64,000 nucleotides of DNA. Source: Hymenobacter busanensis. GTDB taxonomy: Bacteria; Bacteroidota; Bacteroidia; Cytophagales; Hymenobacteraceae. Within the stretch, counting starts at the first letter, position 1. Each line of letters opens with the position of its first letter. The notes under the pieces are model-generated. The model was not told the origin of the DNA. It saw only the letters and a program-made list of their open reading frames with translations, and searched no databases. This document shows, in pieces, positions 1 through 14,383 of this stretch. Both the position numbers and the translations under genes were made by a program. The stretch is from positions 1 through 64,000 of the forward strand of contig NZ_VTWU01000008.1 in the NCBI RefSeq assembly GCF_008727865.1. The letters are read 5' to 3'.

Positions 1-16
1 TCTGCATGACGGTCAC

Positions 17-55
17 GCGAAGCGGTAGAGATGCTTCGACTGCGCTCAGCATGAC
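17..55 (+). repeat. Palindromic intergenic repeat, copy 1
   Basis: A 28-base core at 28-55 (GAGATGCTTCG...CAGCATGAC) is the exact reverse complement of 1904-1931 and differs at two positions from 1977-2004. The preceding GCGAAGCGGTA is shared with 1966-1976. It lies just past the stop of the OmpA-fusion gene. It looks like a REP-type dispersed element; no transposase is nearby. Confidence 0.75.
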
Positions 56-68
56 GTTCGGGTGCCGG

Positions 69-1847
69 TTAGTTGCCCAGCACAATTTCCACGCGGCGGT
101 TTTTGGCGCGGCCGTCGGGGGAGGCGTTGGAGGCCAGGGGCTCGGTGGCGCCGTGGGCGTAGATCTGCACGCGCCCGTCGGGGAAGGCGCTGGCGCTTTT
201 CCGGCTGAGCCAGTGCTGCACGGCCAGGGCGCGGTCTTCGGAGAGCTGCTGATTCTTTTGCGGGTCGCCCTGGTTGTCGGTGTGGCCGTGCACGGCCACT
301 TTCAGGCGGCCGGCCACCACCAGGTCGTCGAAGAGCTGGTTCAGGTCGCGCTCGGCAGCCGGCGTGAAGGTGCTGCGGCCGGTTTCAAACTCGATGTTCC
401 AGGCCCGGCGGCTCACGCTCTGGCGGATTTCATCGTCGGCGGCAAACTGCTGCTTGTCGGCCGGGGCAATGGCTTTGCCTTTGTACTGGGCCTGCAGCTT
501 TTTCAGAATCGAGAGGTCGAGCATTTGATCGAGCGGCACGTAGCTGGGCAGCTCTTTGGGGTAGAGCTTGCTTTGCACGTCGCCGAAGGTCTTGTAGACG
601 GAGGCGTAGACGTTGGTGCCGCCTTCTTCGAGGCCGAACAGGGCCAGGTTGTCGGCGAAGTTGAAGGCCTTGCTGCCGCCCAGCTCCACCACTTCGCCGT
701 TGCGGTCGGCTTCGCTCACGCCCTTGTAGTAGCGCAGCCAGTACGAGCCGGGTTTGTCCTTGTCGCCGTACACTTCGGCCGAAATATCGGCGGCGCGCTT
801 GAGGGCTTCGGGGTGCGTTTTCACTTGGTCGCCGGCCACGGCCAGGGCCGTGATGATGCCTTCTACCTGCTTGGGGTGCGCTTCGTACCAGCGTTTGGTC
901 GTGACCATGATGTTGGGCATCTGGTTGGAGTAATCCTTCGTGGAGACGATGTTCACCAGGCCGCCTTTCTGCTGGGCAATGTTCACGTCGCCGGGGGTCC
1001 AGGTGGCCACGCCGTCGGCAGTCACGTCTACTTTCACGCCGGTTTCCTTGCCCTTCACCACTTTGGTGCGCTGCTCGGGCTTGCCGAGGATGTACTTTTC
1101 GGCGGCGGCCAGGAAGTCGGGGGCAGCCATGAAGTTCACGGCTTCGGGGTCGTAGGTGGTTTCGTCGGGGTTCACTTTCAGGCCGTTGTCGGCGCACCAC
1201 TTCAGGGCAATGTTCTGGTCGCCGTCGCGCAGGTAGCAGGCAATGGTTTTGCCCAAGGCGGCTTTGGGGTTGTCGAGCCATTCCTTCGGACCCATCAGCT
1301 TGTCTTCGCCAAACGACTTGCCGCAACTGTAGGGCAGAATCTGCAGGCTGGTACCGGTTTTTTCGAGCTGGCTCTGCACGGCCGAGAAGGCCGGCAGCCC
1401 GTCGCCCATGATGCTCACGATAAGGCCCGGTGTGGCGGGGTTGTTTTGCAGGTCGAGGGCGTTTTTCACCAGGTCGGCCTGCATCTTGGCCACGTCGTCC
1501 TGCCGCACAATCTGCAGGTCGATGCCGTTGGCGGCCATGGCCGAGCCGGTGGTAGCGCGCGGACCGCCGTTGGCCAGCATGCCGGCCATCTGCGAGTTCC
1601 AGGCCATTACTTCCCAGGTGACGGGGGTGCCCTTCTCGGCGGGTGTGCTGCTGGGCAGCGGGGCCAGCGGCACGGCAATGTTGGTGCGGCTGCCGGCCGT
1701 TTGCGCGGGCAGCTCAATGGTGTTCAGCAGCACCGATTCGGTGGCCGCCTTCTTGAACACGGCCCCGCTGGAAACCAGCTTGTTGATGCCGAAGTACAGC
1801 AGCGCCACAATCAGGACGCCGATGACAATTTTACCGCGAGTAGTCAT
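69..1847 (-). CDS. Solute-binding-like protein fused to an OmpA C-terminal domain
   Basis: Protein of 592 residues. A single hydrophobic segment at about residues 7-24 should anchor it in the inner membrane or act as an uncleaved signal. The middle (about 75-440) resembles the periplasmic substrate-binding proteins of phosphate/NMT1-type ABC transporters, but no permease or ATPase gene is adjacent. The last 120 residues are an OmpA/MotB domain with the peptidoglycan-binding signature GHTDNQGD...N..LSEDRA and the terminal KNRRVEI. The expected role is to link a periplasmic sensor or binding domain to the cell wall. It is the last gene of a minus-strand set with the two coiled-coil genes upstream, and a repeat pair fills the gap to its neighbour. 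The domain calls are read from motifs; the function of the set is inference. Confidence 0.85.
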   Translation of the reverse strand: MTTRGKIVIGVLIVALLYFGINKLVSSGAVFKKAATESVLLNTIELPAQTAGSRTNIAVPLAPLPSSTPAEKGTPVTWEVMAWNSQMAGMLANGGPRATTGSAMAANGIDLQIVRQDDVAKMQADLVKNALDLQNNPATPGLIVSIMGDGLPAFSAVQSQLEKTGTSLQILPYSCGKSFGEDKLMGPKEWLDNPKAALGKTIACYLRDGDQNIALKWCADNGLKVNPDETTYDPEAVNFMAAPDFLAAAEKYILGKPEQRTKVVKGKETGVKVDVTADGVATWTPGDVNIAQQKGGLVNIVSTKDYSNQMPNIMVTTKRWYEAHPKQVEGIITALAVAGDQVKTHPEALKRAADISAEVYGDKDKPGSYWLRYYKGVSEADRNGEVVELGGSKAFNFADNLALFGLEEGGTNVYASVYKTFGDVQSKLYPKELPSYVPLDQMLDLSILKKLQAQYKGKAIAPADKQQFAADDEIRQSVSRRAWNIEFETGRSTFTPAAERDLNQLFDDLVVAGRLKVAVHGHTDNQGDPQKNQQLSEDRALAVQHWLSRKSASAFPDGRVQIYAHGATEPLASNASPDGRAKNRRVEIVLGN

Positions 1848-1903
1848 GTTGGGTATGAGAGAAAGAGTTTTCGGGGGGTTGATTTTTCTGGTCCATTCAG
1901 GCC

Positions 1904-2004
1904 GTCATGCTGAGCGCAGTCGAAGCATCTCGCGTGCTGATGTTAGGTAGCGAATCAGCTATCTGGCGAAGCGGTAGAGATGCTTCGGCTTCGCTCAGCA
2001 TGAC
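1904..2004. repeat. Inverted pair of the palindromic intergenic repeat
   Basis: Arms 1904-1931 and 1977-2004 are inverted copies of one 28-base core (26 of 28 match) separated by 45 bases. Transcribed, they could form a long hairpin. The pair fills most of the gap between the PspA-like gene and the OmpA-fusion gene, so it may act as an internal processing or attenuation site. With copy 1 at 28-55 it brackets the OmpA-fusion gene. Confidence 0.75.
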
Positions 2005-2016
2005 CGTTGCGAGGCC

Positions 2017-3009
2017 TTAGTCGAGCAGGTTGCTGTAGGCGTCGTTGATGGCCTTGGTAGTGGCCGTAGCGGCGCTGGGCTGGCTCAGGGGCTTTTCGTT
2101 GAGCAGGGTGTTGAAGTCGCCTTTCTGGTACTTCTCGAGCAGGCGCTGGCCTTTCTCGCTCATCACGCCGTTCTGGATGTCCATTTCCTTCACGAACTCC
2201 TGCGAGTAGCGCATGGCCTGCTTGATCTGGCCGAGCTGCTGGGCCATGTCCTGGGCCACGCGGTCGGTGGCCATGTCGAAGAAGTACTTCTTGTCGGGGT
2301 CGCCGCGCAGGATGTTCATGGCGGCCCGCATGCCCGAACTCGTGCGCTTCACCAGCTCGTACTCGTCCTTCAGCAGGTTCACCTTGAACTTGGAGTTGTC
2401 GATCTGGCGCAGGGCCGCTTTCAGAATCTGGCGCATCACCACCGACACGTTGGCCGTGGTCGTGAGCATGGGCTGCAGGCGGTTGTTGTAATCCTCCAGC
2501 TGCGCGGCCCGCGAGGCGTACGACTCGGCGAAGTCCTTTTCGCCCTTGCGGGCAGCCGAGTCGGCGAGGCGCAAATACTCCTGCACCTGCTGCTTGTTGG
2601 CGTCCATCTTGCGCTTCACCAGCTCGTGGGCACCTTCGATGTGGCCGACCTCGCCTTCCATGTTCTCGGCCTCCTTCTCGGTGTTGCGGATGTAGTCCTG
2701 CATGATGCCGATGGGGTCCGTCTCGACGAAAATGCCGGCCGCCGTGCGGAAGATGCGCTGCCCCGCGTACCAGAGCCCGGCCTTGATGCGCTTGCTCGTG
2801 ACGATGAGAAACAGCGCGAACAGTGCGCCTAGCCCAATACCGAGCTTCACGGTGTCGAACACGATGTCGACCAGGTACGGCACAATGGCGCCCCAGAAGT
2901 ACACGCCGGCCCCCACGGCACCGACCAGGAAAATCCAGCCCGCTACCTTTTCGGGCCGCTGCCACTTGGGCAAGTCAGAGGGGTTGTGGGTAGTAAGAAG
3001 CGTGTTCAT
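2017..3009 (-). CDS. Membrane-anchored PspA-like coiled-coil protein
   Basis: Protein of 330 residues. Two hydrophobic segments near the N-terminus (about 22-42 and 55-72) are followed by a long charged alpha-helical region (about 85-300) rich in heptads. The helical part opens with a DPIGIMQDYIRNTEKEAE stretch, like the start of PspA/IM30 (ESCRT-III-like) proteins, which also carry DP followed by a long helix. I infer an inner-membrane coiled-coil protein that could scaffold or sense membrane stress; the similarity is at pattern level and not proven. It starts 3 bases after the stop of the 246-residue coiled-coil gene, so the two are almost certainly co-transcribed, and the OmpA-fusion gene follows. 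An alternative is a structural protein of unknown class. Confidence 0.8.
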   Translation of the reverse strand: MNTLLTTHNPSDLPKWQRPEKVAGWIFLVGAVGAGVYFWGAIVPYLVDIVFDTVKLGIGLGALFALFLIVTSKRIKAGLWYAGQRIFRTAAGIFVETDPIGIMQDYIRNTEKEAENMEGEVGHIEGAHELVKRKMDANKQQVQEYLRLADSAARKGEKDFAESYASRAAQLEDYNNRLQPMLTTTANVSVVMRQILKAALRQIDNSKFKVNLLKDEYELVKRTSSGMRAAMNILRGDPDKKYFFDMATDRVAQDMAQQLGQIKQAMRYSQEFVKEMDIQNGVMSEKGQRLLEKYQKGDFNTLLNEKPLSQPSAATATTKAINDAYSNLLD

Positions 3010-3012
3010 CGG

Positions 3013-3753
3013 TTAGCGGGGGTGAATGGTGTTGAAGGAAGTGGGGCCAAGCAGGAAGGATTGCGCAGCCTGGCGGTGGGCCTGCAAGTCGGCCGCGGCG
3101 GTGGTGTTGGCCAGTTCGTAGGATGCCAGCGCGGCCTGCGCCTTTTGCCGCTCCGCCACCAGCTGTTGCTGGGTGGCTTGCAACTGCTCGTTTTTAGCTT
3201 CCAGCTGCCGCGTCAGCTCGGCCAGGTCGGCCTGTAGTTGCTGCTCCTGCCCCACCAGCTGCACAATGGCGCTGGGCTTGCCGCCAGACGCTTTCACCTC
3301 ACCGAGCTTTTCGCGGTGACGTTCCAGCACCTTGGCGCGGTCGGCTTGCAGGCGCTGCTCAAACTGCTCGGCTGAGGCCAGCAGCGTGGGCGCATCGAGG
3401 CCCGTGACGGCGGCAAAAGCGTTGTAGGCTGTTTGGTAGAGCACCGGCCCGGTCAGCCCGCTCGCGGCCATGCTCTTCACCATTTTGGTGTAGGCCACAA
3501 AGTCGCGGCCGTCGCCGGCCAGCAGGGCGGCCACGTGGTCGAGGTGACGCTGCTCGGGTTGGGTTACGGCCGTGCTCAGCACAAACGTGGCCGGACCGGC
3601 CGGGCCCGCCAGCGGCGGTTGCGGTGGGGCAGTAGCGGCAGTCGGGGGCTGAGGCGTGGCTGGGCCTTTGCCGGCCGCGCCGGGGGCGCTGGGGTCGTCG
3701 CCTTCGACGAAGAAGTCTTTGGCGGCTTTGGCGAGGTTGTCGAAAAGGTCCAT
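3013..3753 (-). CDS. Coiled-coil protein, first gene of the envelope module
   Basis: Protein of 246 residues with no signal peptide or membrane segment, so probably cytoplasmic. Residues 20-52 are Pro/Ala rich. A short globular helical part follows (about 55-120), then a long Gln/Leu/Ala-rich coiled coil (about 125-230). I do not recognise a named family. The N-terminal MDLFDNLAKAAKDFF is amphipathic and might touch membrane. It is followed after 3 bases by the membrane-anchored coiled-coil gene, which suggests that the two helical proteins work together. Confidence 0.75.
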   Translation of the reverse strand: MDLFDNLAKAAKDFFVEGDDPSAPGAAGKGPATPQPPTAATAPPQPPLAGPAGPATFVLSTAVTQPEQRHLDHVAALLAGDGRDFVAYTKMVKSMAASGLTGPVLYQTAYNAFAAVTGLDAPTLLASAEQFEQRLQADRAKVLERHREKLGEVKASGGKPSAIVQLVGQEQQLQADLAELTRQLEAKNEQLQATQQQLVAERQKAQAALASYELANTTAAADLQAHRQAAQSFLLGPTSFNTIHPR

Positions 3754-4731: not shown

Positions 4732-7224
4732 CTAGCTGCGCACGATGCGCAGCTGCCGCTTCATGCGCTCAATGCGCACCTTGGTTTCGTCGATGCGGCC
4801 TTGGTATTCTTCACGCAGTTGCCCGGCATTTTTCGAGCGAGCGAAGAAGTCGAGGTTGGTTTGCAGCGTGGCAATGTCGTTTTCCAACTCGTTGATGTCA
4901 CGACGCAGTTGCTGCTCCTTGCGGTAGAGCAGTTGCTGGGCATCGGGGTTGGCCTTCATGCGCTGCACCTGCAGCTGAAACTGCTGCTCCTCGCGCTCCT
5001 GGTACGAAAGGCCGGGAATGGTGTCGATGTACTTGCCGGCCAGGCTCAGGAATTTCTCCTCGGCTTGGGCGCTGCCGCGGCGGTTGCCTTGGCTGTCGAA
5101 CTGCGCCCACTCCTGCACCAGCGCCTGCAGGCCTTCCTGCGTGCCGGGGGTATCGGCCGACAGCGCGGCTACCTGCTCGGCAATCCGGTCGAGGAAAGCC
5201 GACTGCTCGGCCGACGCTTGCTGCACCTGCTGCTCGCGGTGGCGCACTTCCTGGTGTTTCCGCTCGAAGAAAGCATCACAGGCAGTACGGAAGCGGTGCC
5301 AGATTTTGTCCGACTGCTTCTCGGGCACGCGGCCGATGAGTTTCCACTCCTTCTGCACCCGAATGACGGTTTCGCGGCCGGCTTCCCAATCGGGGTTTTC
5401 GAGGGCAGCTTCGGCCTGCTCGCAGAGGGCAATTTTCTGCTTCAGGTTGTTGGACTTCTCTTCGTCGAGGGCCTTGAAGAACTGGTTTTTGTGCTGGAAA
5501 AAGCCTTTGTAGGCGGCCCAGAACTGCTTGTTCATGCTCTCGGCCTGGCTGCGCGGCACGAGGCCGGCGCTGTCCCACTGCTCTTTGAGGGCCTGCAGCT
5601 CGTCGGTTTTGGCGCGCCACTCGTTCACGCGCTCGGTTTTGAACTCGCCGTAGGGCAGAATCTGAGTCAGGATTTCCTGCTTGCGGGCCAGGTTGGCATT
5701 TTCCTGCGCCGAGCGGGCGTCGAGGAAGCTGCGTTTCCGGTCATGCACTTTCTCGGAGGCTTGCAGGAAACGCTGCCAGAGTGGCTCGCGCATGTCGTTG
5801 GGCACGGGGCCCACGGTTTTCCACTCCTCGTGCAGTTGGCGCAACTCCTGCAGTGCCTTGTTGATGCTCGACTGCCCGGCCAGCGCCTCGGCGCGCTGGA
5901 TCAGAGCCTCCTTGGCTTCCTGGTTACGGCGGCGGTCCAGCTCTTTCATCTCGAAGAACAGACCGCGGTTGTTGTAATAGATGTCGAGCAGGGCATGGTA
6001 GGAGTTCCACAGCTCCTGCGCCTGCGCCTGCGGCACCGGGCCGGTGGCTTTCCAGTCGGCCTGCAGGGTTTTGATGCGAGCCGAAGAATCCTTGGTCTCA
6101 GCCGACTCGACCAGCTGGCGCAGCTGCGACAACAAATGCTGCTTGTGAAGCAGGTTTTTGGCGCGCTGCTCGTCTTCCTGCTTGGCGTCGCGCACGCGGG
6201 CGTCGCGGTAGTCCTGCATGCCCTTGCTCACCTCAGCGTAACCATCGGGGCCGGCGAAGGAAAAAGCGTCAGCCTCGTTGCCTTCCTGCACGAAACGCTG
6301 TCGGGCTGCTTGGCGCTCCACGTTTACGCTTTGTTCGTAAAGCCGGTGCAGGTCGTTGATTTGCTTGCGGTTCTGGCGGGCATCAGGGCGGCGCAGCAGC
6401 TCCAGGATGTAAGCACCCTGGGCCGTCACGTCGAGCGTAGCAAAATCGGGCGCCGGGGTTTCGGGCACGTACTCTTCGTCTTCCTCGTGGTGAGCGGCGG
6501 CCGCAGCTTGCGGAGCATTGGTGGAGCCGCCGGGCTGCGCTTCGCCGGGCGTTTCGCTCAGACCCATTGCAGCCGGCGCAGCATGGTGCGCGGCGTCGGC
6601 GTGGGCAGCTTCGGTGGCCGATTCGTTGTTGGAAGTCGGCAGGGCCGCCAGCGGTTCGGGCGCGGTTTCGATGTCGGCGGCCTGGGCCAGCTCGTGCGCA
6701 GGCAGCGTTACGGCAATGGGTTCTTCGGTAGTCGCCGCAACTGGAGCTTGTTCTTGAGAAGCTGAAGGCGTTCCGGTGGCTGGTGCAGCAGTTGCAGGAG
6801 CATCGGAAGCAGGTTCGGAGACTACAGCAGCGGCCGGAACCGGCTCAGTTGGTTCGGGACCGGTTGCCAGGGCAGCTTCGGCGGTACGCACACCTTCGTT
6901 GGCCGTGCCGTAGTGTTCCTCGGCGCGCTGAAGCGGCTCCGAAGGCGTTGTGGCAGTCGGCTCGGTGGCTACTGCGGGAGCGGTGACGGGCAAATCGGCG
7001 GCCGAGGGCAAGCCTGTACCTACTTCGGCTGGCTGGGGCACTATGGGTGCTTCGGGGGCAGCAGGCGCTGAAGCGGCAGCTTGCGGTTGCGGCGCGTCGG
7101 CCGCCGGAGAGTCGGCGGCTTTGCTGCGCGCAATTTCGGCCAGACGGCGTTCCAGAATGCTCATGGGCGAATCCGAAGCGTCATCGGGACGGTTGGGGGC
7201 GGTGTTCTCGTTCTCGGGTTGCAT
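4732..7224 (-). CDS. DUF349 domain protein
   Basis: Protein of 830 residues. About the first 260 residues are Ala/Pro/Glu/Thr-rich low complexity. The rest is helical and contains several DUF349 repeats, recognisable from W-x-GPVP-like motifs: TGPVPQAQ, VGPVPNDM, AGLVPRSQ and IGRVPEKQ, each followed by an aromatic- and basic-rich helix (e.g. WQRF, WHRF). DUF349 proteins are widespread in Bacteroidota and cytoplasmic; their biochemical role is not established. The C-terminus (about 770-830) is a coiled coil ending in a basic stretch (MKRQLRIVRS). Monocistronic, with YqgE upstream on the same strand 52 bases away. Confidence 0.9.
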   Translation of the reverse strand: MQPENENTAPNRPDDASDSPMSILERRLAEIARSKAADSPAADAPQPQAAASAPAAPEAPIVPQPAEVGTGLPSAADLPVTAPAVATEPTATTPSEPLQRAEEHYGTANEGVRTAEAALATGPEPTEPVPAAAVVSEPASDAPATAAPATGTPSASQEQAPVAATTEEPIAVTLPAHELAQAADIETAPEPLAALPTSNNESATEAAHADAAHHAAPAAMGLSETPGEAQPGGSTNAPQAAAAAHHEEDEEYVPETPAPDFATLDVTAQGAYILELLRRPDARQNRKQINDLHRLYEQSVNVERQAARQRFVQEGNEADAFSFAGPDGYAEVSKGMQDYRDARVRDAKQEDEQRAKNLLHKQHLLSQLRQLVESAETKDSSARIKTLQADWKATGPVPQAQAQELWNSYHALLDIYYNNRGLFFEMKELDRRRNQEAKEALIQRAEALAGQSSINKALQELRQLHEEWKTVGPVPNDMREPLWQRFLQASEKVHDRKRSFLDARSAQENANLARKQEILTQILPYGEFKTERVNEWRAKTDELQALKEQWDSAGLVPRSQAESMNKQFWAAYKGFFQHKNQFFKALDEEKSNNLKQKIALCEQAEAALENPDWEAGRETVIRVQKEWKLIGRVPEKQSDKIWHRFRTACDAFFERKHQEVRHREQQVQQASAEQSAFLDRIAEQVAALSADTPGTQEGLQALVQEWAQFDSQGNRRGSAQAEEKFLSLAGKYIDTIPGLSYQEREEQQFQLQVQRMKANPDAQQLLYRKEQQLRRDINELENDIATLQTNLDFFARSKNAGQLREEYQGRIDETKVRIERMKRQLRIVRS

Positions 7225-7276
7225 GGCTGCTCAGCATAAAGAGCCCGGCACAACGGGCCGGGCCAACGGAGGGAAA

Positions 7277-7843
7277 TTAATTCAAGCGCGGGTCGACGGG
7301 GTAGTTGGACATGACCCGGAACCGGCCGCCTTTTTCGCGTAAAATGGCCTGCCAGAAGGCATCGGTAGTCAAAGTAAACACTTTCCCGGCAGCATTGGGG
7401 TGGACAATCCAGGTATTTTCCTGCACTTCGCCCGCCAGCTGGCCGCTGGTCCAGCCCGAATAGCCCACGTACAGACGCAGGTCGTCGGCGGTCAGCTCGC
7501 CACTGGCCACAAGGCCCAGGAGCACTTCGAAGTCGCCGCCCCAGTACACATCCTGCCCCAACGGTTCGGCATTCGGAATGTCGGCGCGGCGGTGCAGGTA
7601 GTGGAGCGTATCGGGCTGCACGGGGCCGCCCACGTGCAGCGGCAGGCTGGCGGCGGGGTGGTCTTCGCCTTCGGGCAAGTTGAGCGCGTCGCCGAGGGCC
7701 ACGGTGGTCGGCCGGTTGAGCAAAAGGCCAAAGGAGCCTTCTTCCTCGTCGTGGCGGCACAAAAGCACCACCGACCGCTCGAAGTTCGGGTCGCCTAGAA
7801 AGGGCTGCGAAATCAGCAAGCTGCCACTACGAAGCTGGGGCAT
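7277..7843 (-). CDS. YqgE/AlgH family protein
   Basis: Protein of 188 residues, the normal length for UPF0301/AlgH. The start at 7843 gives MPQLRSGSLLIS, followed by the family hallmark QPFLGDPNFERSVVLLC and GLLLNRP near the N-terminus. The middle has HVGGPVQPDTLHYLHR and the C-terminal half YVGYSGWTSGQL. The family is cytoplasmic; the Pseudomonas member was linked to alginate regulation but the molecular function is unknown. An in-frame ATG 27 codons upstream lies in non-conserved sequence and was rejected. The gene is divergent from pdxH. Confidence 0.93.
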   Translation of the reverse strand: MPQLRSGSLLISQPFLGDPNFERSVVLLCRHDEEEGSFGLLLNRPTTVALGDALNLPEGEDHPAASLPLHVGGPVQPDTLHYLHRRADIPNAEPLGQDVYWGGDFEVLLGLVASGELTADDLRLYVGYSGWTSGQLAGEVQENTWIVHPNAAGKVFTLTTDAFWQAILREKGGRFRVMSNYPVDPRLN

Positions 7844-8035
7844 GGCGCGGGGCTGGAGAGTGGATAATAGGGACACTGACGCGGTGCGGCGGCGCAAAGA
7901 TGCGCGGCAATATGTGCCGCGCAAGGTTGCCCGTGCTTTTTGCTTACGTTGGGCAGGGCGCTGCGGGTTCCCGCGGGGGCTGTGTTACTTTGCGGGCCCA
8001 CAGCGCCCGGCTGCCGCGGCGAATTTCGATTCTGT

Positions 8036-8686
8036 ATGCAAGACCAGTCCCTCGCCGACCTGCGCAAGACCTACGCCCAGCACGAACTCAGCGAAGCCGC
8101 GGCCGACGCCGACGGCCTGCGGCAGTTCCGCCGCTGGCTCGACGAAGCCCTGCAGGCCCAGCTCGACGAGCCCACCGCCATGACCGTGGCCACCGTGGGC
8201 CCCGACGGCCAGCCCTCGGCCCGCATTGTGCTGCTGAAAGGCTTGCCCGACGACGCGGGGTTTCTGTTTTACACCAATTACGACTCGCGCAAGGGCCAGG
8301 AAATGGCCACTACGCCCAAGGCCGCCCTTACGTTTTTCTGGCCTGGCCTGGAACGGCAGGTGCGCGTGGAAGGCACGGTAGAAAAAGCACCCGAAGCCCA
8401 GTCGACAGAATACTTTCAGAGTCGGCCACGCAGCAGCCAGGTAGGCGCCTGGGCTTCGCCGCAAAGCCAGCCCATTGCCAGCCGCGAAGTGCTGGAACAG
8501 CGCGAAGCGGAAATCGAGCAGCGCTTTGCCGGCCAAGATCCGCTGCCGCGCCCGCCACACTGGGGCGGCTACGTGGTGCGGCCTCACCGCATCGAGTTCT
8601 GGCAGGGCCGCCCTTCGCGCCTGCACGACCGGCTGCTGTACGAAAAAACGGCCACGGGCTGGCAGCGCAGCCGGCTGGCGCCGTGA
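8036..8686 (+). CDS. pdxH: Pyridoxamine/pyridoxine 5'-phosphate oxidase
   Basis: Protein of 216 residues, close to the 218 of the E. coli enzyme. It oxidises pyridoxine or pyridoxamine 5'-phosphate to pyridoxal 5'-phosphate using FMN and O2, the last step of vitamin B6 synthesis and salvage. Family motifs: ARIVLLKG and [12 protein letters not shown] (FMN and substrate contacts), [27 protein letters not shown], and the C-terminal [18 protein letters not shown] followed by LHDR. The start [13 protein letters not shown] matches the usual N-terminus; the in-frame extension to 7940 looks non-coding. Confidence 0.96.
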
Positions 8687-8797
8687 AGAGTGAAGGGTAA
8701 TTTTTAGCTTGCGCTGCCATTGGGCCGTTTTCATCTGACCGGTCCCTCCTTTTCCCGACGTTGGCGCGTCGGCGCAAGCCCCTGCTTACGCTCTTTC

Positions 8798-10114
8798 ATG
8801 GCTGAAATTCAACCCGTGCGCGCCTGGCGCTACAATCCCGAGCTTAACCAGCAGATCGACCGGTACGTGTCGCCTTTGTTCGACGTGGTGTCGGCCAAGC
8901 AGCGGGAACAGCTCTACCAGAACCCGCTTAACAGCATCCATCTCTCGGTGCCGCGCGGCGACGACGCGGCCGGCGAGGCCCTGCGCCGCCTCACCGAATG
9001 GGAACAAACGGGCGTGCTGGAGCAGGACGCGCTGGCGGGCATTTACGTGTATTACCAGTATTTCCGGCTGCCGGGCAGCCACCACGAATACTGCCGCAAA
9101 GGCTTCATGTGCCACATTCGGGCCTACGATTGGCAGGAGCGCGTGGTGTTGCGTCACGAAAACACGCTGCCCACCGCTGTGAACGACCGCGCCGAGCTGC
9201 TGGCCCGCACCCAGTTCCAAACCAGCGCCACCCACGGCTTGTACCGCGACGAGGACTTTGAGCTGGAGCGCTACTGCGACGAAGCCATTCAGGACCCGCT
9301 CTGCCAAACCGAGGAAGACTACCAGGGCGCCCGCGACGTGCTGGCCGTGATTCAGGACGCCGCCGTTATCCAGCGTTTTCAAGCGGTGCTCAGCCAGCGG
9401 CAGGTCATTTTGGCCGACGGCCACCACCGCTACGAAGGCTCGCTGGCCTACCGGCAGGCCCGCCTGGCGGCCAACCCGCAGGCCACCGGGCACGAAGCCT
9501 GGAACTATCACCTGATGTACCTGACCAACGCGGCGGCCGACGACCTGCGCATTCTGCCCACGCACCGCCTGCTGCTGGAGCTGCCCGGCAACCTGACCGA
9601 TGCCGAGCTGCTCGCGCGCCTGGAGCCGTACTTCACCATCCGGCCGCTCGACGATGCGTTTTCCATGCCCGAAATCATTGCCGGCAAGCCCTGGGCCTTT
9701 GGGCTCTACCTCGGCGGCCAGCCCTACAAGCTGCGGCTGCGGCCCGAGGTGCACGAGCAGCTTGCCTGGAACACCACGCCCGAAGTGAAGGCGCTGGACC
9801 TGACGGTGCTGCACTACTTCGTGCTGGAGCGCGCCCTGGGCATTGTGGGGCCCGATGCCCAGCGGCAATGGACGGGCATTACCTACGTGCGCAACTTCCC
9901 CGAATGCCTGCAGCGCGTGGACTCGGGCGAGGCGCGTGCCGCCTTTATTACCAACGAAGTGACCATGGACGAAGTAGAGCGCGTGTGCCAGTCGGGCGCC
10001 GTGATGCCGCCCAAGTCCACCTTCTTCTACCCCAAAACGCTCGGCGGCCTGCTTTTCACCAGCATCCGCGACGACGAACCCGTGCCGTATGCCCCGTTTA
10101 CTGCTGGCCTCTAA
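8798..10114 (+). CDS. DUF1015 family protein
   Basis: Protein of 438 residues; the whole length matches DUF1015. Typical segments are the N-terminal VRAWRYNP, the region around YVYYQYF, the strongly conserved ILADGHHRYEGSL and a C-terminal MPPKSTFFYPKTLGGL. The DGHHRYE motif looks like an active-site or metal site, but no reaction is established. I chose the start at 8798 (MAEIQPVRAW). The 3' end overlaps the maf start by 26 bases, so the two genes are translationally coupled. Confidence 0.93.
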   Translation: MAEIQPVRAWRYNPELNQQIDRYVSPLFDVVSAKQREQLYQNPLNSIHLSVPRGDDAAGEALRRLTEWEQTGVLEQDALAGIYVYYQYFRLPGSHHEYCRKGFMCHIRAYDWQERVVLRHENTLPTAVNDRAELLARTQFQTSATHGLYRDEDFELERYCDEAIQDPLCQTEEDYQGARDVLAVIQDAAVIQRFQAVLSQRQVILADGHHRYEGSLAYRQARLAANPQATGHEAWNYHLMYLTNAAADDLRILPTHRLLLELPGNLTDAELLARLEPYFTIRPLDDAFSMPEIIAGKPWAFGLYLGGQPYKLRLRPEVHEQLAWNTTPEVKALDLTVLHYFVLERALGIVGPDAQRQWTGITYVRNFPECLQRVDSGEARAAFITNEVTMDEVERVCQSGAVMPPKSTFFYPKTLGGLLFTSIRDDEPVPYAPFTAGL

Positions 10115-10673
10115 TTCCCCGCGGCGGCGTCAGCTGCTCACCGACCTCGGCCTGCCCTACGAAGTGCGCCTGAAGGATGTGGACGAAAGCTACCCACCGG
10201 ACCTGCACCGCGCCGACGTGGCCGAGTACCTGGCCGCCCACAAAGCCAGCGCCTACCGCACCGAGCTGCTGCCTGGCGACGTACTGCTCACCGCCGACAC
10301 CATAGTGTGCCTCGACGAGCAGGTGCTCAACAAGCCTACCGACGAAACCGACGCCGTGCGCATGCTCACGCTCCTGCAAGGCCGCGCCCACGACGTTTAC
10401 ACCGGCGTGTGCCTGCTCACCGGCGAGGGCCAGCAAGTGGTGTTTTCCGACCAGACCCGGGTGCATTTCCGCCCGCTCAGCGAAACCGAAATCCGCTACT
10501 ACGTGCAGCAGTACCGGCCATTCGACAAAGCCGGCGCTTACGGTGCCCAAGATTGGATTGGGCTGGTGGCGGTGACGCGGTTGGAAGGCTCGTATTTCAA
10601 CGTGATGGGGCTGCCGGTACACCGCGTGTACGCCGAGCTGGAAAAGCTGGGCTTTGGAGTGCAAGCGCTCTAG
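10089..10673 (+). CDS. maf: Maf family nucleotide pyrophosphatase
   Basis: Protein of 194 residues. Maf proteins hydrolyse non-canonical or modified nucleoside triphosphates (e.g. dTTP/UTP or m7GTP) to the monophosphate. Motifs: LLLASNSPRRRQLL at the N-terminus, ADTIV, NKPTDETDAVRML, and DKAGAYGAQ with the conserved Lys. The YhdE-type (dTTP/UTP) specificity is likely but not certain. It starts inside the end of the DUF1015 gene and ends 15 bases before the stop of a convergent gene. Confidence 0.95.
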   Translation: MPRLLLASNSPRRRQLLTDLGLPYEVRLKDVDESYPPDLHRADVAEYLAAHKASAYRTELLPGDVLLTADTIVCLDEQVLNKPTDETDAVRMLTLLQGRAHDVYTGVCLLTGEGQQVVFSDQTRVHFRPLSETEIRYYVQQYRPFDKAGAYGAQDWIGLVAVTRLEGSYFNVMGLPVHRVYAELEKLGFGVQAL

Positions 10674-10688
10674 GCTGCCGCCTCCACC

Positions 10689-12353
10689 TTATTTCAAGTG
10701 AATTTGCCGGAGTTCGTGCATTGAGTTGCTTTCTAGAGCAACCCAGTACGTGCCCCGTGGCCAGCTCCGCACGTTCAGCTTGTAGTCGGTTTCGTTCAAT
10801 TCGTGCAGCAGCACGGGCTTGCCCAAAGCCGAGTACACCGTCAACCTGACAGGATCAGTGGCCGATCCTGCGCCCGTAACGTGTAGTTCGTCTACCACGG
10901 GATTGGGGAACAAAGCCAGTGGTGCGGCCGGTAGCCTGGGGCTGCTGGTTCGGAGCGGATCAAGTGTGAGGCGGGCCCAGAACCCGCTGACCGGGCTGGC
11001 CGGCCCGGTGAGGGTGAACGGCCCAAACACCCCGCTCGACTCAAAATTACCGGTCCAGTACACGGCCTGGTCGCCCAGCAAAGCCACATCCGAAGCCCCA
11101 TTGCTACCCGGACCGCCGGAGGCGAGGCGCCACTGCAGCGCGCCGGCGGGAGAAAATGCAGCCAGCACCGAATAACGCGAAACTGTTTCTGTGCCCCATG
11201 CAGCAACCACGCGGTTGACATTGGCGGCCAACGTCACCCCGGTATTGGTGTAGCCAAAAGCAGTGCTGACATTCCCCACCGGCTGAATCCACGTCTGCGA
11301 GCCGCTGCCGGCGTTCAGACGCGCCACGTAACCAGTCATCGTCGTGCCGGCAAATAGGGCTGTTCCGTCAAAAATTTCATTGCCTTTGAACGTGCCCGCG
11401 AGGTAGCATTCCTTGCCATACACGGCCAGGCCGGTGCCCATCGACACATCGTTGGTCCCGAACGCGAGGCTTGGTTTTTTACTGGCTTTCAGCCAGCTGG
11501 CAACTCCGGTAGCAGCCTGCAAGCGCGCCACAAACGTTTGGCTGGGCGAGTTGCTATCCGGCAGCCGCAACCCGCCAAGCTCCAGCGCCGAGCTGAAAAA
11601 CCCGGTGGCAAAGCAATTCCCGGCATCGTCGACGGCGACTTCGTTTACTCGCGAGCCGTACACGCCGCCGTCGTGGTTGCCCAACGTGACCCACTGCGCC
11701 TCCCCAACCACGTTGTAAGCGGCCACAAAGCCCGTCCGCCGTCCCGGCGAAACCCGAACCGGCCCGAAATCGATGGTGCTGCCACCGCCCAAACGCCCGC
11801 CGATGTAAAATATGGAAGCGCCCGGTTTCATGGCAATGGATTTCCCTTCTGAGTAATCCAGGTCGTTGCCAATGCCACGGCTCCAGAGGGTGGTACCGGA
11901 GCTAGCGGAGCAGCGCAGAACGAGCACCGCCGCGAAAATCGGGGATGCCACGGTACTGGCGGCGCCGGTATTGACCGTGAGGGTGCCGGTGAAGGACCCC
12001 ACCACATACACACTGCCGATGCCGTCGAATGCAATACGCGACCCATACGCCGAGGCGCCGGCTCCGCCTACCTGGCGCACCCAAATCAGATTGCCGGCCG
12101 CATCCAGCCGGGCCACAAACAGGTCTGCCCGGCCCACCGGCACCATAGTCTTTTTCCCGCCGGGATAAGGCGAGGTAAAACTGATCTGCGTGGAAAAGCT
12201 GCCCGTGACGTAGGTGTCGCCGCTGGCTGGATCAGCCGCCACGCTGGTTACAGCCACTTGGTTGAGCGCCCGGGCTGTTTCCCAGTGCACCTGACTCCTC
12301 CCTGGCACTACCGCACCGACTACGCAAATCAGGAATACGAACAGGGCTTTCAT
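10689..12353 (-). CDS. Secreted beta-propeller-like protein with T9SS sorting domain
   Basis: Protein of 554 residues with a signal peptide (MKALFVFLICVVGAVVPGRSQ). The body is made of repeats with the pattern DPASGDTYVTGSF, DGIGSVYVVGSF, DDAGNCFATGFF and YLAGTF, like SBBP beta-propeller repeats. The last 80 residues are a type A T9SS sorting domain (LFPNPVVDELHVTG ... YKLNVRSWPRGTYWVAL). It should be exported through the Sec system and then across the outer membrane by T9SS. Substrate unknown; such proteins are often surface-attached. Convergent with maf. Confidence 0.9.
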   Translation of the reverse strand: MKALFVFLICVVGAVVPGRSQVHWETARALNQVAVTSVAADPASGDTYVTGSFSTQISFTSPYPGGKKTMVPVGRADLFVARLDAAGNLIWVRQVGGAGASAYGSRIAFDGIGSVYVVGSFTGTLTVNTGAASTVASPIFAAVLVLRCSASSGTTLWSRGIGNDLDYSEGKSIAMKPGASIFYIGGRLGGGSTIDFGPVRVSPGRRTGFVAAYNVVGEAQWVTLGNHDGGVYGSRVNEVAVDDAGNCFATGFFSSALELGGLRLPDSNSPSQTFVARLQAATGVASWLKASKKPSLAFGTNDVSMGTGLAVYGKECYLAGTFKGNEIFDGTALFAGTTMTGYVARLNAGSGSQTWIQPVGNVSTAFGYTNTGVTLAANVNRVVAAWGTETVSRYSVLAAFSPAGALQWRLASGGPGSNGASDVALLGDQAVYWTGNFESSGVFGPFTLTGPASPVSGFWARLTLDPLRTSSPRLPAAPLALFPNPVVDELHVTGAGSATDPVRLTVYSALGKPVLLHELNETDYKLNVRSWPRGTYWVALESNSMHELRQIHLK

Positions 12354-12670
12354 CGCAGTACAGTAGAGGTTGAACCATCACGTTTCGGCAGAACTTTACG
12401 CTACATCGCCGTGCCTGTTATCCATGCAACCCCAAGCGGATGTACAAGACCCGACGCACCAAGGCCCAAGCGGCCGGCTAACCGACCTGAATGTATTGCA
12501 CGAAAAACATTAATTCTATAACATATTCATGTGGCAGTATATCCTAAAAATTTCTGCGTGGGCAGTTGCTGTCATCGTTATTGCTGAAGCCTGCCTGGGC
12601 CAAATGGGCGCCCACAAAAAAAGGCCGGTAGACGCTGCTACCGGCCTTTTTACTACTTAAACAAAGCGTA
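12354..12670. other. Intergenic region upstream of the T9SS cargo gene
   Basis: 317 bases without a gene. The part 12500-12545 is AT-rich (TTAATTCTATAACATATTC) and may hold the cargo-gene promoter on the minus strand. The catalase terminator lies at 12619-12651. Confidence 0.5.
12619..12651 (-). terminator. Terminator of the catalase gene
   Basis: An 11-base stem (AAGGCCGGTAG / CTACCGGCCTT) with a short loop, flanked by an A-run that reads as a T-run on the minus strand, 20 bases past the catalase stop. Confidence 0.85.
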
Positions 12671-14383
12671 CTAATACGGCTTGGCTTCGTGGCTTTGCGC
12701 TTCGGCCTGGGCCACGGCTGCTTCCTGTTTGGCTTCGTTCTGCTGATTGCCTCCTTCGCTCTGCTTGCCGCTGCGGGCAGCTTGCAGGCCGTCGGCAAGG
12801 CGCTTGCCCCAGTCTGGGTCGCAGTTGGTGCACAGCTCCACCATTTTGTCGCTCACGCGGCGGTCGGCATCGGCCAGGGCACCCACCATGTTGTTGATGA
12901 GGTCGTTTCGCTCCCAGTCTTCGTGCAGGCGGTACCGCTCGCCGGCCTGCTTGAAGTTGTTCTGCCGGTCGATGGTCTGGCGCATCACGCGGCCCGTGTA
13001 TTGTGGCATGTGGTCGGGAGCCGAGCGGGGCGCCTCTTTCAAGCCGTTCAGGCTGCTGGGTTCGTAGTTGATGTGCAGGTTCTGATCGGGCGCCGAGTCG
13101 ACGTGGTAGGCCATTTGCCCGTCGCGCTGGTTGGTGGCCACGTGCTTTTTGGGGGCGTTAATAGGCAGTTGCAGGTAGTTGGTGCCCACGCGGTAGCGTT
13201 GCGTGTCGGAGTACGAGAACGTACGACCCTGCAGCATCTTGTCGTCGGAGAAATCGAGGCCATCGACCAGCACGCCGGTACCGAAGGCCGCCTGCTCCAC
13301 CTCGGCGAAGTAGTTTTCGGGGTTGCGGTTCAGGGTCATCTTGCCCACGGGCAGGAACGGGAACTGATCCTGCGGCCAAATCTTGGTGTCGTCAAGCGGG
13401 TCGAAGTCCAGCTCGGGGTGCTCATCATCCGACATAATCTGCACGCACAGTTCCCACTCGGGGAAGTTGCCGGCCTTGATGTTGTCGAACAGGTCCTGGG
13501 TGGCGTGGTTGAAGTTTTTGGCCTGAATAGCCTCGGCTTCCTGCGCCGTGAGGTTTTTTATGCCTTGCAGCGGCTCCCAGTGGTATTTCACCAGTACGGC
13601 TTCGCCTTGGGCATTCACCCACTTGTAGGTGTTCACGCCCGAGCCCTGCATCTGGCGGTAGTTGGCCGGAATGCCCCACGGCGAAAACAGGAACGCCACC
13701 ATGTGCATGGCCTCCGGCGTGTTGCAGATGAAGTCAAAAATCCGCTCCCCGCTCTGGCGGTTGGTTACCGGGTCGGGCTTCTGGGAGTGAATCAGGTCGG
13801 GGAACTTCATGGCGTCGCGGATGAAGAACACCTTGAGGTTGTTGCCCACCAAATCCCAGTTGCCGTCCTCGGTGTAGAACTTCACCGCAAAGCCGCGCGG
13901 GTCGCGCAGGGTTTCGGGCGAGTGGCCGCCGTGGCCCACCGTGGAGAAGCGCACGAATACCGGCGTCTGCTTGCCTTTCTGCTGAAACAGTTTGGCCCGG
14001 GTGTACTTCGCAATCGGCTCCCCGCCTACCGTGCCGTAGGCTTCGAATACGCCGTGGGCCCCGGCCCCGCGGGCGTGCACCACGCGCTCGGGAATCCGCT
14101 CCCGGTCGAAGTGGCTGATTTTCTCAATGAAGGCGTAGTTTTCCAACGTAGCCGGGCCGCGGTTGCCCAGCGTCCGGATGTTCTGGTTGTTGGTGAGCGG
14201 GTGGCCCTGCCGGGTGGTCAGCGTTTGGGCATTCTCGCCCTCGGCCGTGCGCGGGTCGCGCGACGAGCCGGAGCCCGTTACGGCCGTGCCGGTGCCGTCG
14301 GCGGGCGTGTGGCCGTTGCCGTTTGGGTGACCGTTGTGGCCGTTCGAGCCGTGGTCCTGGGGATTTTGGGGGTTGGGAGTCAT
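12671..14383 (-). CDS. Monofunctional haem catalase
   Basis: Protein of 570 residues that converts H2O2 to water and O2. The start at 14383 ([10 protein letters not shown]) gives a Gly/Asn/His-rich N-terminal tail, then the catalase core. Catalytic His103 lies in [11 protein letters not shown], the catalytic Asn in DLVGNN, and the haem-ligand Tyr in [10 protein letters not shown]. Other family segments are [24 protein letters not shown] and [12 protein letters not shown]. The length suggests a clade without a full C-terminal flavodoxin-like domain; the tail is Gln/Ala/Glu rich. No OxyR or PerR gene is adjacent. A terminator follows. Confidence 0.96.

What the first reader, a model, noticed from the sequence alone, without database searches (positions are those of the whole stretch)
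69..3753. Envelope module: two coiled-coil proteins plus a solute-binding/OmpA fusion
Three minus-strand genes are arranged as soluble coiled coil, membrane-anchored PspA-like coiled coil (3 bases apart) and a periplasmic solute-binding-like domain fused to an OmpA peptidoglycan-binding domain. Binding domains of this sort normally feed an ABC transporter, which is absent. The set looks like a device that links something bound in the periplasm, the cell wall and a membrane-stress scaffold. I cannot name a described system with this make-up.
Basis: partly seen in the sequence, partly recalled or inferred. Interest (0 to 1): 0.6.

Follow-up and report, generated by a model that had tools for sequence, protein, structure and literature searches.

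The report
Wall-anchored ABC importer with membrane scaffold
The three genes are the first part of a five-gene set, cut by a contig break, that encodes an ATP-driven importer tied to the cell wall plus a membrane-scaffold protein; bacteria and many of the largest known phages carry the same set, which had hardly been described.

Summary
The three genes are real: a soluble coiled coil, a membrane-anchored PspA-like protein, and a solute-binding/OmpA fusion. The permease and ABC ATPase lie at the end of contig C3, followed by a sigma-54 response regulator, a BBP2 porin and a histidine kinase. In most Hymenobacter loci the order is coiled coil, PspA-like, SBP-OmpA, permease, ATPase. The SBP domain models like TauA/NrtA/CmpA (Z 25.6), the OmpA domain like TagL (1.3 Å), and the PspA-like hairpin like Vipp1 (1.2 Å over 135 residues). 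ATPase catalytic residues and SBP cleft loops are conserved.

Ravi et al. 2024 mention such bacterial operons in one sentence. What I did not find described is that the same module sits in very large phages: Lak megaphages, a 735-kb and a 462-kb phage, Bacillus phage G, and about 71 IMG/VR contigs. A terminase was found in all six reference phages and 13 of 55 IMG/VR contigs tested.

Most likely it is a NitT/TauT-type importer whose binding protein is staked between inner membrane and wall, in a membrane patch scaffolded by an ESCRT-III-like protein. The substrate is unknown.

The parts
3013..3753 (-). Gene 1: soluble coiled-coil protein (246 aa), relatives 175-258 aa next to the PspA-like gene
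   Evidence: ORF. Homologous to the same-position gene of other bacteria and phages: e.g. window vs v462 E 4e-7, vs v735 8e-7; G306 vs v735 8e-18. No curated family. One invariant Asp (D84) in 17 diverse relatives
2017..3009 (-). Gene 2: membrane-anchored PspA/Vipp1-like protein (330 aa): N-terminal hydrophobic helices 19-49 and 53-71 (a third helix at 73-90), then coiled-coil hairpin 99-231 and shorter helices
   Evidence: PF04012 30.3 bits; 12 of 36 aligned members hit PF04012 at E<=0.01; model pLDDT 76.5; Vipp1 7o3x Z 11.1, rmsd 1.2 over 135 aa; profile vs PDB sequences best hit Vipp1 E 1.6e-5
69..1847 (-). Gene 3: signal-anchor TM (3-26), TauA/NrtA-like solute-binding domain (about 73-448), OmpA-like peptidoglycan-binding domain (about 481-592)
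   Evidence: PF00691; model pLDDT 83.8; TauA 6ssy Z 25.6 rmsd 3.2 over 290; TagL 7bba Z 19.5 rmsd 1.3 over 110
28..55 (-). One arm of a dispersed inverted-repeat element at the contig edge; its partner is at C3:1057416-1057443
1904..2004 (.). Second inverted pair of the same dispersed repeat between genes 2 and 3 (1904-1931 + and 1977-2004 -)
1..68 (-). Contig edge inside the operon. The operon continues on contig C3 (outside the window): permease 1057385-1056618, ABC ATPase 1056268-1055450, sigma-54 response regulator, BBP2 porin, histidine kinase

Best explanation
A five-gene wall-anchored ABC import module. Shown by sequence and models: gene 3 is a TauA/NrtA-type binding protein with an N-terminal hydrophobic anchor, fused to a peptidoglycan-binding OmpA domain; the next two genes, on contig C3, are its permease and an ABC ATPase of a family with fully conserved catalytic motifs; gene 2 is a PspA/Vipp1-like (ESCRT-III superfamily) protein with N-terminal membrane helices; gene 1 is its soluble coiled-coil neighbour. 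Inferred: the binding protein is staked between inner membrane and wall, captures a small solute (the fold family takes taurine, sulfonates, nitrate or bicarbonate; in this strain it may enter the periplasm through the BBP2 porin) and passes it to the permease. Also inferred: the PspA-like protein and its partner assemble on the cytoplasmic face around the permease, clustering it or guarding the membrane at that wall-fixed site. The same device is carried by many very large phages, which probably use it to keep the infected cell's envelope or nutrient supply working during long infections.
For: Gene order coiled coil - psp - SBP/OmpA - permease - ATPase in 51 of 80 Hymenobacter loci, most others truncated or lacking only the coiled coil. 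Permease and ATPase of this genome at the abutting contig end. SBP and OmpA folds. PspA/Vipp1 hairpin. In 48 diverse ATPases of the module the core Walker A (S-G-x-G-K), Q-loop, SGG..QR signature, Walker B D-E and H-loop positions are 100% conserved. A permease loop glycine is 100% conserved, and SBP residues D182 and P285 are 100%, N93, G95, S178, G180, D278 and T303 over 90%. BBP2 porin, response regulator and kinase follow in this genome; a BBP2 porin also follows in two Flavobacteriales-like genomes. All five genes in one of two orders in about 71 of 86 IMG/VR contigs, and in Lak phages, the 735-kb and 462-kb phages and Bacillus phage G.
Against: No substrate or transport activity is known. 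The permease matches BPD_transp_1 below the curated cut-off in Hymenobacter (18.3 vs 26.4 bits), though well above in phage G (83.4). OmpA-fused binding proteins are unusual for importers and could equally be a mechanical or sensory design. The porin was recovered in only 6 of 65 other Hymenobacter loci with enough flank. The link between the PspA-like protein and the permease rests on gene order only; no complex was predicted.
Confidence: 0.55

Rival explanations
1. Envelope-integrity or mechanical device rather than nutrient importer: as in FtsEX, the ABC engine transmits force or a signal between cytoplasm and wall. The OmpA domain feels the wall, and the PspA-like protein seals or reshapes the inner membrane when the tether or a bound ligand (for example a wall fragment) reports damage.
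For: Constant pairing of a PG-binding SBP with an ESCRT-III-like protein in bacteria and phages of different hosts, including phage G of a host without outer membrane. Complete nutrient importers are not what one expects in phages (general knowledge). PspA/Vipp1 proteins stabilise membranes (established).
Against: The ligand-cleft residues of a small-anion SBP are as conserved as the ATPase core, and a porin sits in the operon in this genome and in two Flavobacteriales-like genomes: both favour real solute handling.
Confidence: 0.28
2. Phage-phage conflict module: carried by large phages to exclude superinfecting phages or resist defence, and kept by some bacteria as a defence.
For: Wide presence in very large phages, patchy presence in bacteria; the OmpA domain weakly resembles Zorya ZorB.
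Against: The ZorB match is only the generic OmpA domain, no other defence component matched convincingly, and in this and many other Hymenobacter genomes the module is followed by a sigma-54 response regulator and a kinase, which looks like physiology.
Confidence: 0.1
3. Three unrelated envelope genes that lie together by chance, or an assembly artefact.
For: The locus is broken at a contig edge.
Against: Order kept across Hymenobacter loci, other Bacteroidota and dozens of phage contigs.
Confidence: 0.01

Closest known systems
PspA/Snf7-TM operons with AAA+ ATPase, ABC ATPase, permease and PBPB-OmpA protein (Ravi et al. 2024, mSystems, PMC11237479; example OGG56892.1)
   Same: PspA-like protein with TM segment, ABC ATPase, permease, solute- plus peptidoglycan-binding protein; a coiled-coil third gene is noted for some Bacteroidetes PspA/Snf7 neighbourhoods
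   Different: The Hymenobacter and phage loci lack the AAA+ ATPase (no hit; present only in the Flavobacteriales-like genomes). The main text of the paper mentions neither viruses nor phage G
TauABC / SsuABC / NrtABCD / CmpABCD (NitT/TauT family) ABC importers
   Same: SBP fold (TauA Z 25.6, NrtA/CmpA/SsuA Z 22-24), permease and ATPase relatives, gene adjacency
   Different: SBP has an N-terminal anchor and a C-terminal OmpA domain; two extra coiled-coil proteins; substrate unknown
PspA / IM30 (Vipp1) family, ESCRT-III superfamily
   Same: Long alpha-helical hairpin superposes on Vipp1 at 1.2 A over 135 residues, 18% identity
   Different: N-terminal membrane helices take the place of the amphipathic helix; below the Pfam cut-off; partners differ from PspBCF
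MotB/PomB, TssL/TagL, Pal: OmpA-type wall anchors
   Same: OmpA domain and, for MotB/PomB, an inner-membrane anchor with wall-bound C-terminus
   Different: Between anchor and wall domain lies a full solute-binding domain

Membership tests
NitT/TauT-type ABC importer | Periplasmic SBP of TauA/NrtA/SsuA fold | tested here: met
   Model residues 73-448 vs TauA 6ssy Z 25.6, rmsd 3.2, 290 aligned
NitT/TauT-type ABC importer | Permease of BPD_transp_1 type next to the SBP | tested here: met
   Own permease at C3 end; relatives hit BPD_transp_1: 18.3 bits (sub-threshold) in Hymenobacter L030, 56 and 83 bits in phages
NitT/TauT-type ABC importer | ABC ATPase with intact catalytic motifs | tested here: met
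   PF00005 91.8 bits in L030; core motif positions 100% conserved in 48 sequences
NitT/TauT-type ABC importer | ATP-driven uptake of a substrate | not testable with these tools
   needs binding and uptake assays
PspA/IM30 (PF04012) | Score over curated Pfam cut-off | tested here: not met
   30.3 vs 33.9 bits for the window protein; 12 of 36 members reach E<=0.01. I therefore call it PspA-like, not a PspA
PspA/IM30 (PF04012) | ESCRT-III-type helical hairpin | tested here: met
   Vipp1 7o3x 1.2 A over 135 residues. BAR domains score as high in Z at about 3-5 A, so the low rmsd and the sequence profile carry the argument
PspA/IM30 (PF04012) | Membrane-bound oligomer that remodels or protects membranes | not testable with these tools
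   needs biochemistry
PspA/Snf7-TM + ABC + PBPB-OmpA operon class of Ravi et al. 2024 | ABC ATPase, permease and PBPB-OmpA with PspA/Snf7-TM | tested here: met
PspA/Snf7-TM + ABC + PBPB-OmpA operon class of Ravi et al. 2024 | Associated AAA+ ATPase | tested here: not met
   AAA+ of L125 has no tblastn hit (E<=1e-8) in the Hymenobacter or phage loci. The paper says 'along with' and 'may occur', so this is a sub-type rather than an exclusion
Zorya anti-phage system | ZorA-ZorB MotAB-like motor | tested here: not met
   Only the generic OmpA domain resembles ZorB; no ZorA match among the module proteins scanned

The most novel reading that the evidence does not exclude
A transferable five-gene envelope machine, an ESCRT-III-like membrane scaffold coupled to a wall-tethered ABC transporter, is a recurrent accessory system of many very large phages (up to 0.7 Mb) infecting both Gram-negative and Gram-positive hosts, where it keeps the infected cell's envelope working during long infections; bacterial chromosomal copies such as this one share ancestry with it and exchange with it.
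Probability: 0.4. Interest if true: 0.8.

Novelty: new variant of a known kind. Interest (0 to 1): 0.62.

Why it matters
Very large phages carry hundreds of unexplained genes. A complete, co-inherited importer with conserved catalytic motifs, a wall anchor and an ESCRT-III-like protein, kept with the same gene content in Lak phages, a 735-kb phage and the cultured Bacillus phage G, points to a concrete job at the host envelope. Phage G can be grown, so the question can be tested. It also gives a genetic handle on how PspA-like proteins act without a dedicated AAA+ ATPase, which Ravi et al. 2024 list as unknown.

Tried and rejected
Absence of an ABC transporter: rejected (contig edge). Zorya or other defence membership: only generic OmpA and ABC signals in PADLOC. 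Plasmid search with the SBP-OmpA proteins: only partial matches, no full-length relative. PHROGs: gp247 and gp249 of phage G have their own families of unknown function; ATPase relatives are filed as 'ABC transporter'. Literature searches for the module in phages and inside papers on huge phages found no description; the library is open-licence only and supplements were not read. Concern that IMG/VR contigs are mis-called bacterial DNA: one is (L136 groups inside Hymenobacter). A terminase over the family cut-off was found in the six reference phages and in 13 of 55 IMG/VR records tested, all 13 over 100 kb; two more were sub-threshold. Most records without one are shorter fragments, but some large ones also lack a match (for example the 429-kb record, although its near-identical relative LR756500 has one), and some smaller contigs may still be bacterial. 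Not every giant phage has the module: four records of 484-642 kb gave no match with the SBP-OmpA profile. Direction of transfer between phages and bacteria is not resolved; the tree has long branches.
Full report
CHECK OF THE OBSERVATION. The three minus-strand ORFs exist as described: 3013-3753 (246 aa), 2017-3009 (330 aa, starting 3 bases after the first stops) and 69-1847 (592 aa). The window is G000:C10:1-64000, so its first base is the first base of a contig. Searching this genome with the Hymenobacter metallicola downstream genes finds a permease at C3:1056618-1057385 (92% identity) and an ABC ATPase at C3:1055450-1056268 (85%), both on the minus strand at the end of the 1,057,471-base contig C3. 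The C3 end and the C10 start carry the same ~55-base repeat in opposite orientation, whose 28-base core has 24 near-copies in the genome; this probably explains the break. Further along C3 on the same strand lie a sigma-54 response regulator, a BBP2 porin and a histidine kinase.

CO-CONSERVATION. Eighty loci from Hymenobacter genomes were searched with profiles of all five proteins. Fifty-one have coiled coil - psp - SBP/OmpA - permease - ATPase in that order on one strand. Others are cut by contig ends, or lack a recognisable coiled-coil gene (12 have psp-omp-perm-atp), or have only coiled coil plus psp. In H. artigasi and H. siberiensis one locus has psp-omp-perm-atp and another has coiled coil-psp, as if the set had been split in two. 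Downstream, 45 of 65 loci with enough flank have the response regulator and 50 the kinase. In Bacteroidota at large the module is patchy: 8 of 395 genomes at E<=1e-30. In three genomes of one Flavobacterium-like genus (in G139 beside ATP-synthase genes) it is followed by an AAA+ ATPase and, in two of the three, a BBP2 porin.

WHAT THE PROTEINS ARE. Gene 3: AlphaFold2 model with 34 aligned relatives, mean pLDDT 83.8. Residues 73-448 match TauA (6ssy, Z 25.6, rmsd 3.2 A, 290 aligned), CmpA, NrtA and SsuA (Z 22-24). Residues 481-592 match the TagL and other OmpA-type peptidoglycan-binding domains (Z 19.5, rmsd 1.3 A). The N-terminus is one hydrophobic helix (3-26) without an obvious cleavage site or lipobox (read from sequence), so it is probably an uncleaved inner-membrane anchor. 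Gene 2: model pLDDT 76.5, with hydrophobic helices 19-49 and 53-71, then a hairpin 99-231 that superposes on Vipp1 at 1.2 A over 135 residues with 18% identity. BAR domains reach similar Z but at about 3-5 A, and a sequence profile of 36 relatives finds Vipp1/PspA first among solved structures (E 1.6e-5). Twelve of 36 relatives hit PF04012, the window protein just below the cut-off. Gene 1 is a coiled-coil protein without a curated family, but homologues or similar proteins hold the same position in the module.

THE MACHINE LOOKS INTACT. In 48 diverse ATPases of the module the core Walker A, Q-loop, signature, Walker B Asp-Glu and H-loop positions are 100% conserved. In 52 permeases a glycine of the predicted ATPase-coupling loop is invariant. 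In 54 SBP-OmpA proteins putative cleft-loop residues (D182, P285 100%; N93, G95, S178, G180, D278, T303 over 90%) and the OmpA LS..RA core are conserved. From my own knowledge of OmpA domains, that arginine is one of the two residues that hold diaminopimelate. Hence a working transporter with a shared ligand class is the simplest reading. What it carries is not known.

PHAGES. A tblastn of gene 2 against phage records hit only Lak megaphages and the 735-kb phage. Their neighbourhoods hold the full set: Lak-C1 and LR756501 have coiled coil, psp, SBP/OmpA, permease and ATPase in the Hymenobacter order. The 462-kb phage LR756500 has the same and is closest in sequence (35% over 572 residues of the SBP/OmpA). 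Bacillus phage G has permease gp243, ATPase gp245, coiled coil gp246, psp gp247 and two SBP/OmpA, gp249 and gp250. LR756511 (595 kb) has a diverged version with extra SBPs and a vWA protein. Five IMG/VR scans gave 87 distinct contigs; 72 hold all five genes, in one of two orders (coiled coil-psp-omp-perm-atp, or perm-atp-coiled coil-psp-omp as in phage G), one of them being a Hymenobacter sequence. A terminase large-subunit match over the family cut-off was found in all six reference phages and in 13 of 55 IMG/VR records tested, all over 100 kb. Four other phage records of 484-642 kb gave no match to the SBP-OmpA profile, so the module is common but not universal in giant phages. In a tree of the SBP/OmpA proteins, Hymenobacter and G306 form one clade and the Flavobacterium-like copies sit among viral ones, which speaks for exchange; direction is open.

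PRIOR KNOWLEDGE. Ravi et al. [quoted passage not shown] That covers the bacterial operon class in brief. I found no description of the module in phages in the papers searched, with the limit that only open-licence main texts were searched.

MECHANISM AND CONFIDENCE. Best explanation (0.55): an importer whose binding protein is staked between inner membrane and wall, within a membrane patch scaffolded by the PspA-like protein and its partner. Shown: gene content, order, folds, conserved motifs. Inferred: topology, ligand import, scaffold contact, role in phage infection. Main rival (0.28): an envelope-integrity or force-transmitting device. A conflict-module reading gets 0.1.

VERDICT. The larger point is that the same five-gene module is a recurrent part of very large phage genomes.

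Noticed in passing
window 28-55 (-), 1904-1931 (+), 1977-2004 (-); C3:1057416-1057443 (+): Dispersed intergenic repeat (core GTCATGCTGAGCGCAGTCGAAGCATCTC) often in inverted pairs, 24 copies in the genome with up to 2 mismatches and none for the reversed control; one pair lies between genes 2 and 3 and one pair straddles the contig break.
   Followed up: partly
L127 (G051) 5557-9304; L128 (G024) 8161-11044: Second type of locus: the coiled-coil/psp pair followed not by SBP-OmpA but by an N-terminally anchored protein (in L127 with a weak Ppx/GppA-like match), then in L127 a YqiJ-like protein. The coiled-coil/psp pair may be a reusable scaffold with exchangeable partners.
   Followed up: partly
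L057 and L068 (H. artigasi); L059 and L087 (H. siberiensis): The module looks split over two loci: one with psp-omp-perm-atp without the coiled-coil gene, the other with coiled coil and psp only.
   Followed up: no
L134 (LR756511, 595-kb phage) 5282-13844: Diverged, expanded version: two SBP-OmpA proteins, a vWA protein, a further SBP without OmpA, permease and ATPase; the two coiled-coil-like genes in between are not recognised by the profiles.
   Followed up: partly
L136 (IMGVR_UViG_2627853892_000001): This IMG/VR contig is Hymenobacter DNA by its SBP-OmpA placement, probably a false viral call.
   Followed up: yes
L125, L126 (Flavobacterium-like genomes): Module is followed by a CbbX/SpoVK-like AAA+ ATPase and a BBP2 porin (in L125 it also sits beside the ATP-synthase operon); the porin recurs in the operon of this genome.
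   Followed up: partly
PMC12363816 (Jug phages, 360-402 kb): The paper reports a pspA-like gene beside terD in another huge phage clade; PspA-like proteins may be a wider theme in huge phages.
   Followed up: no
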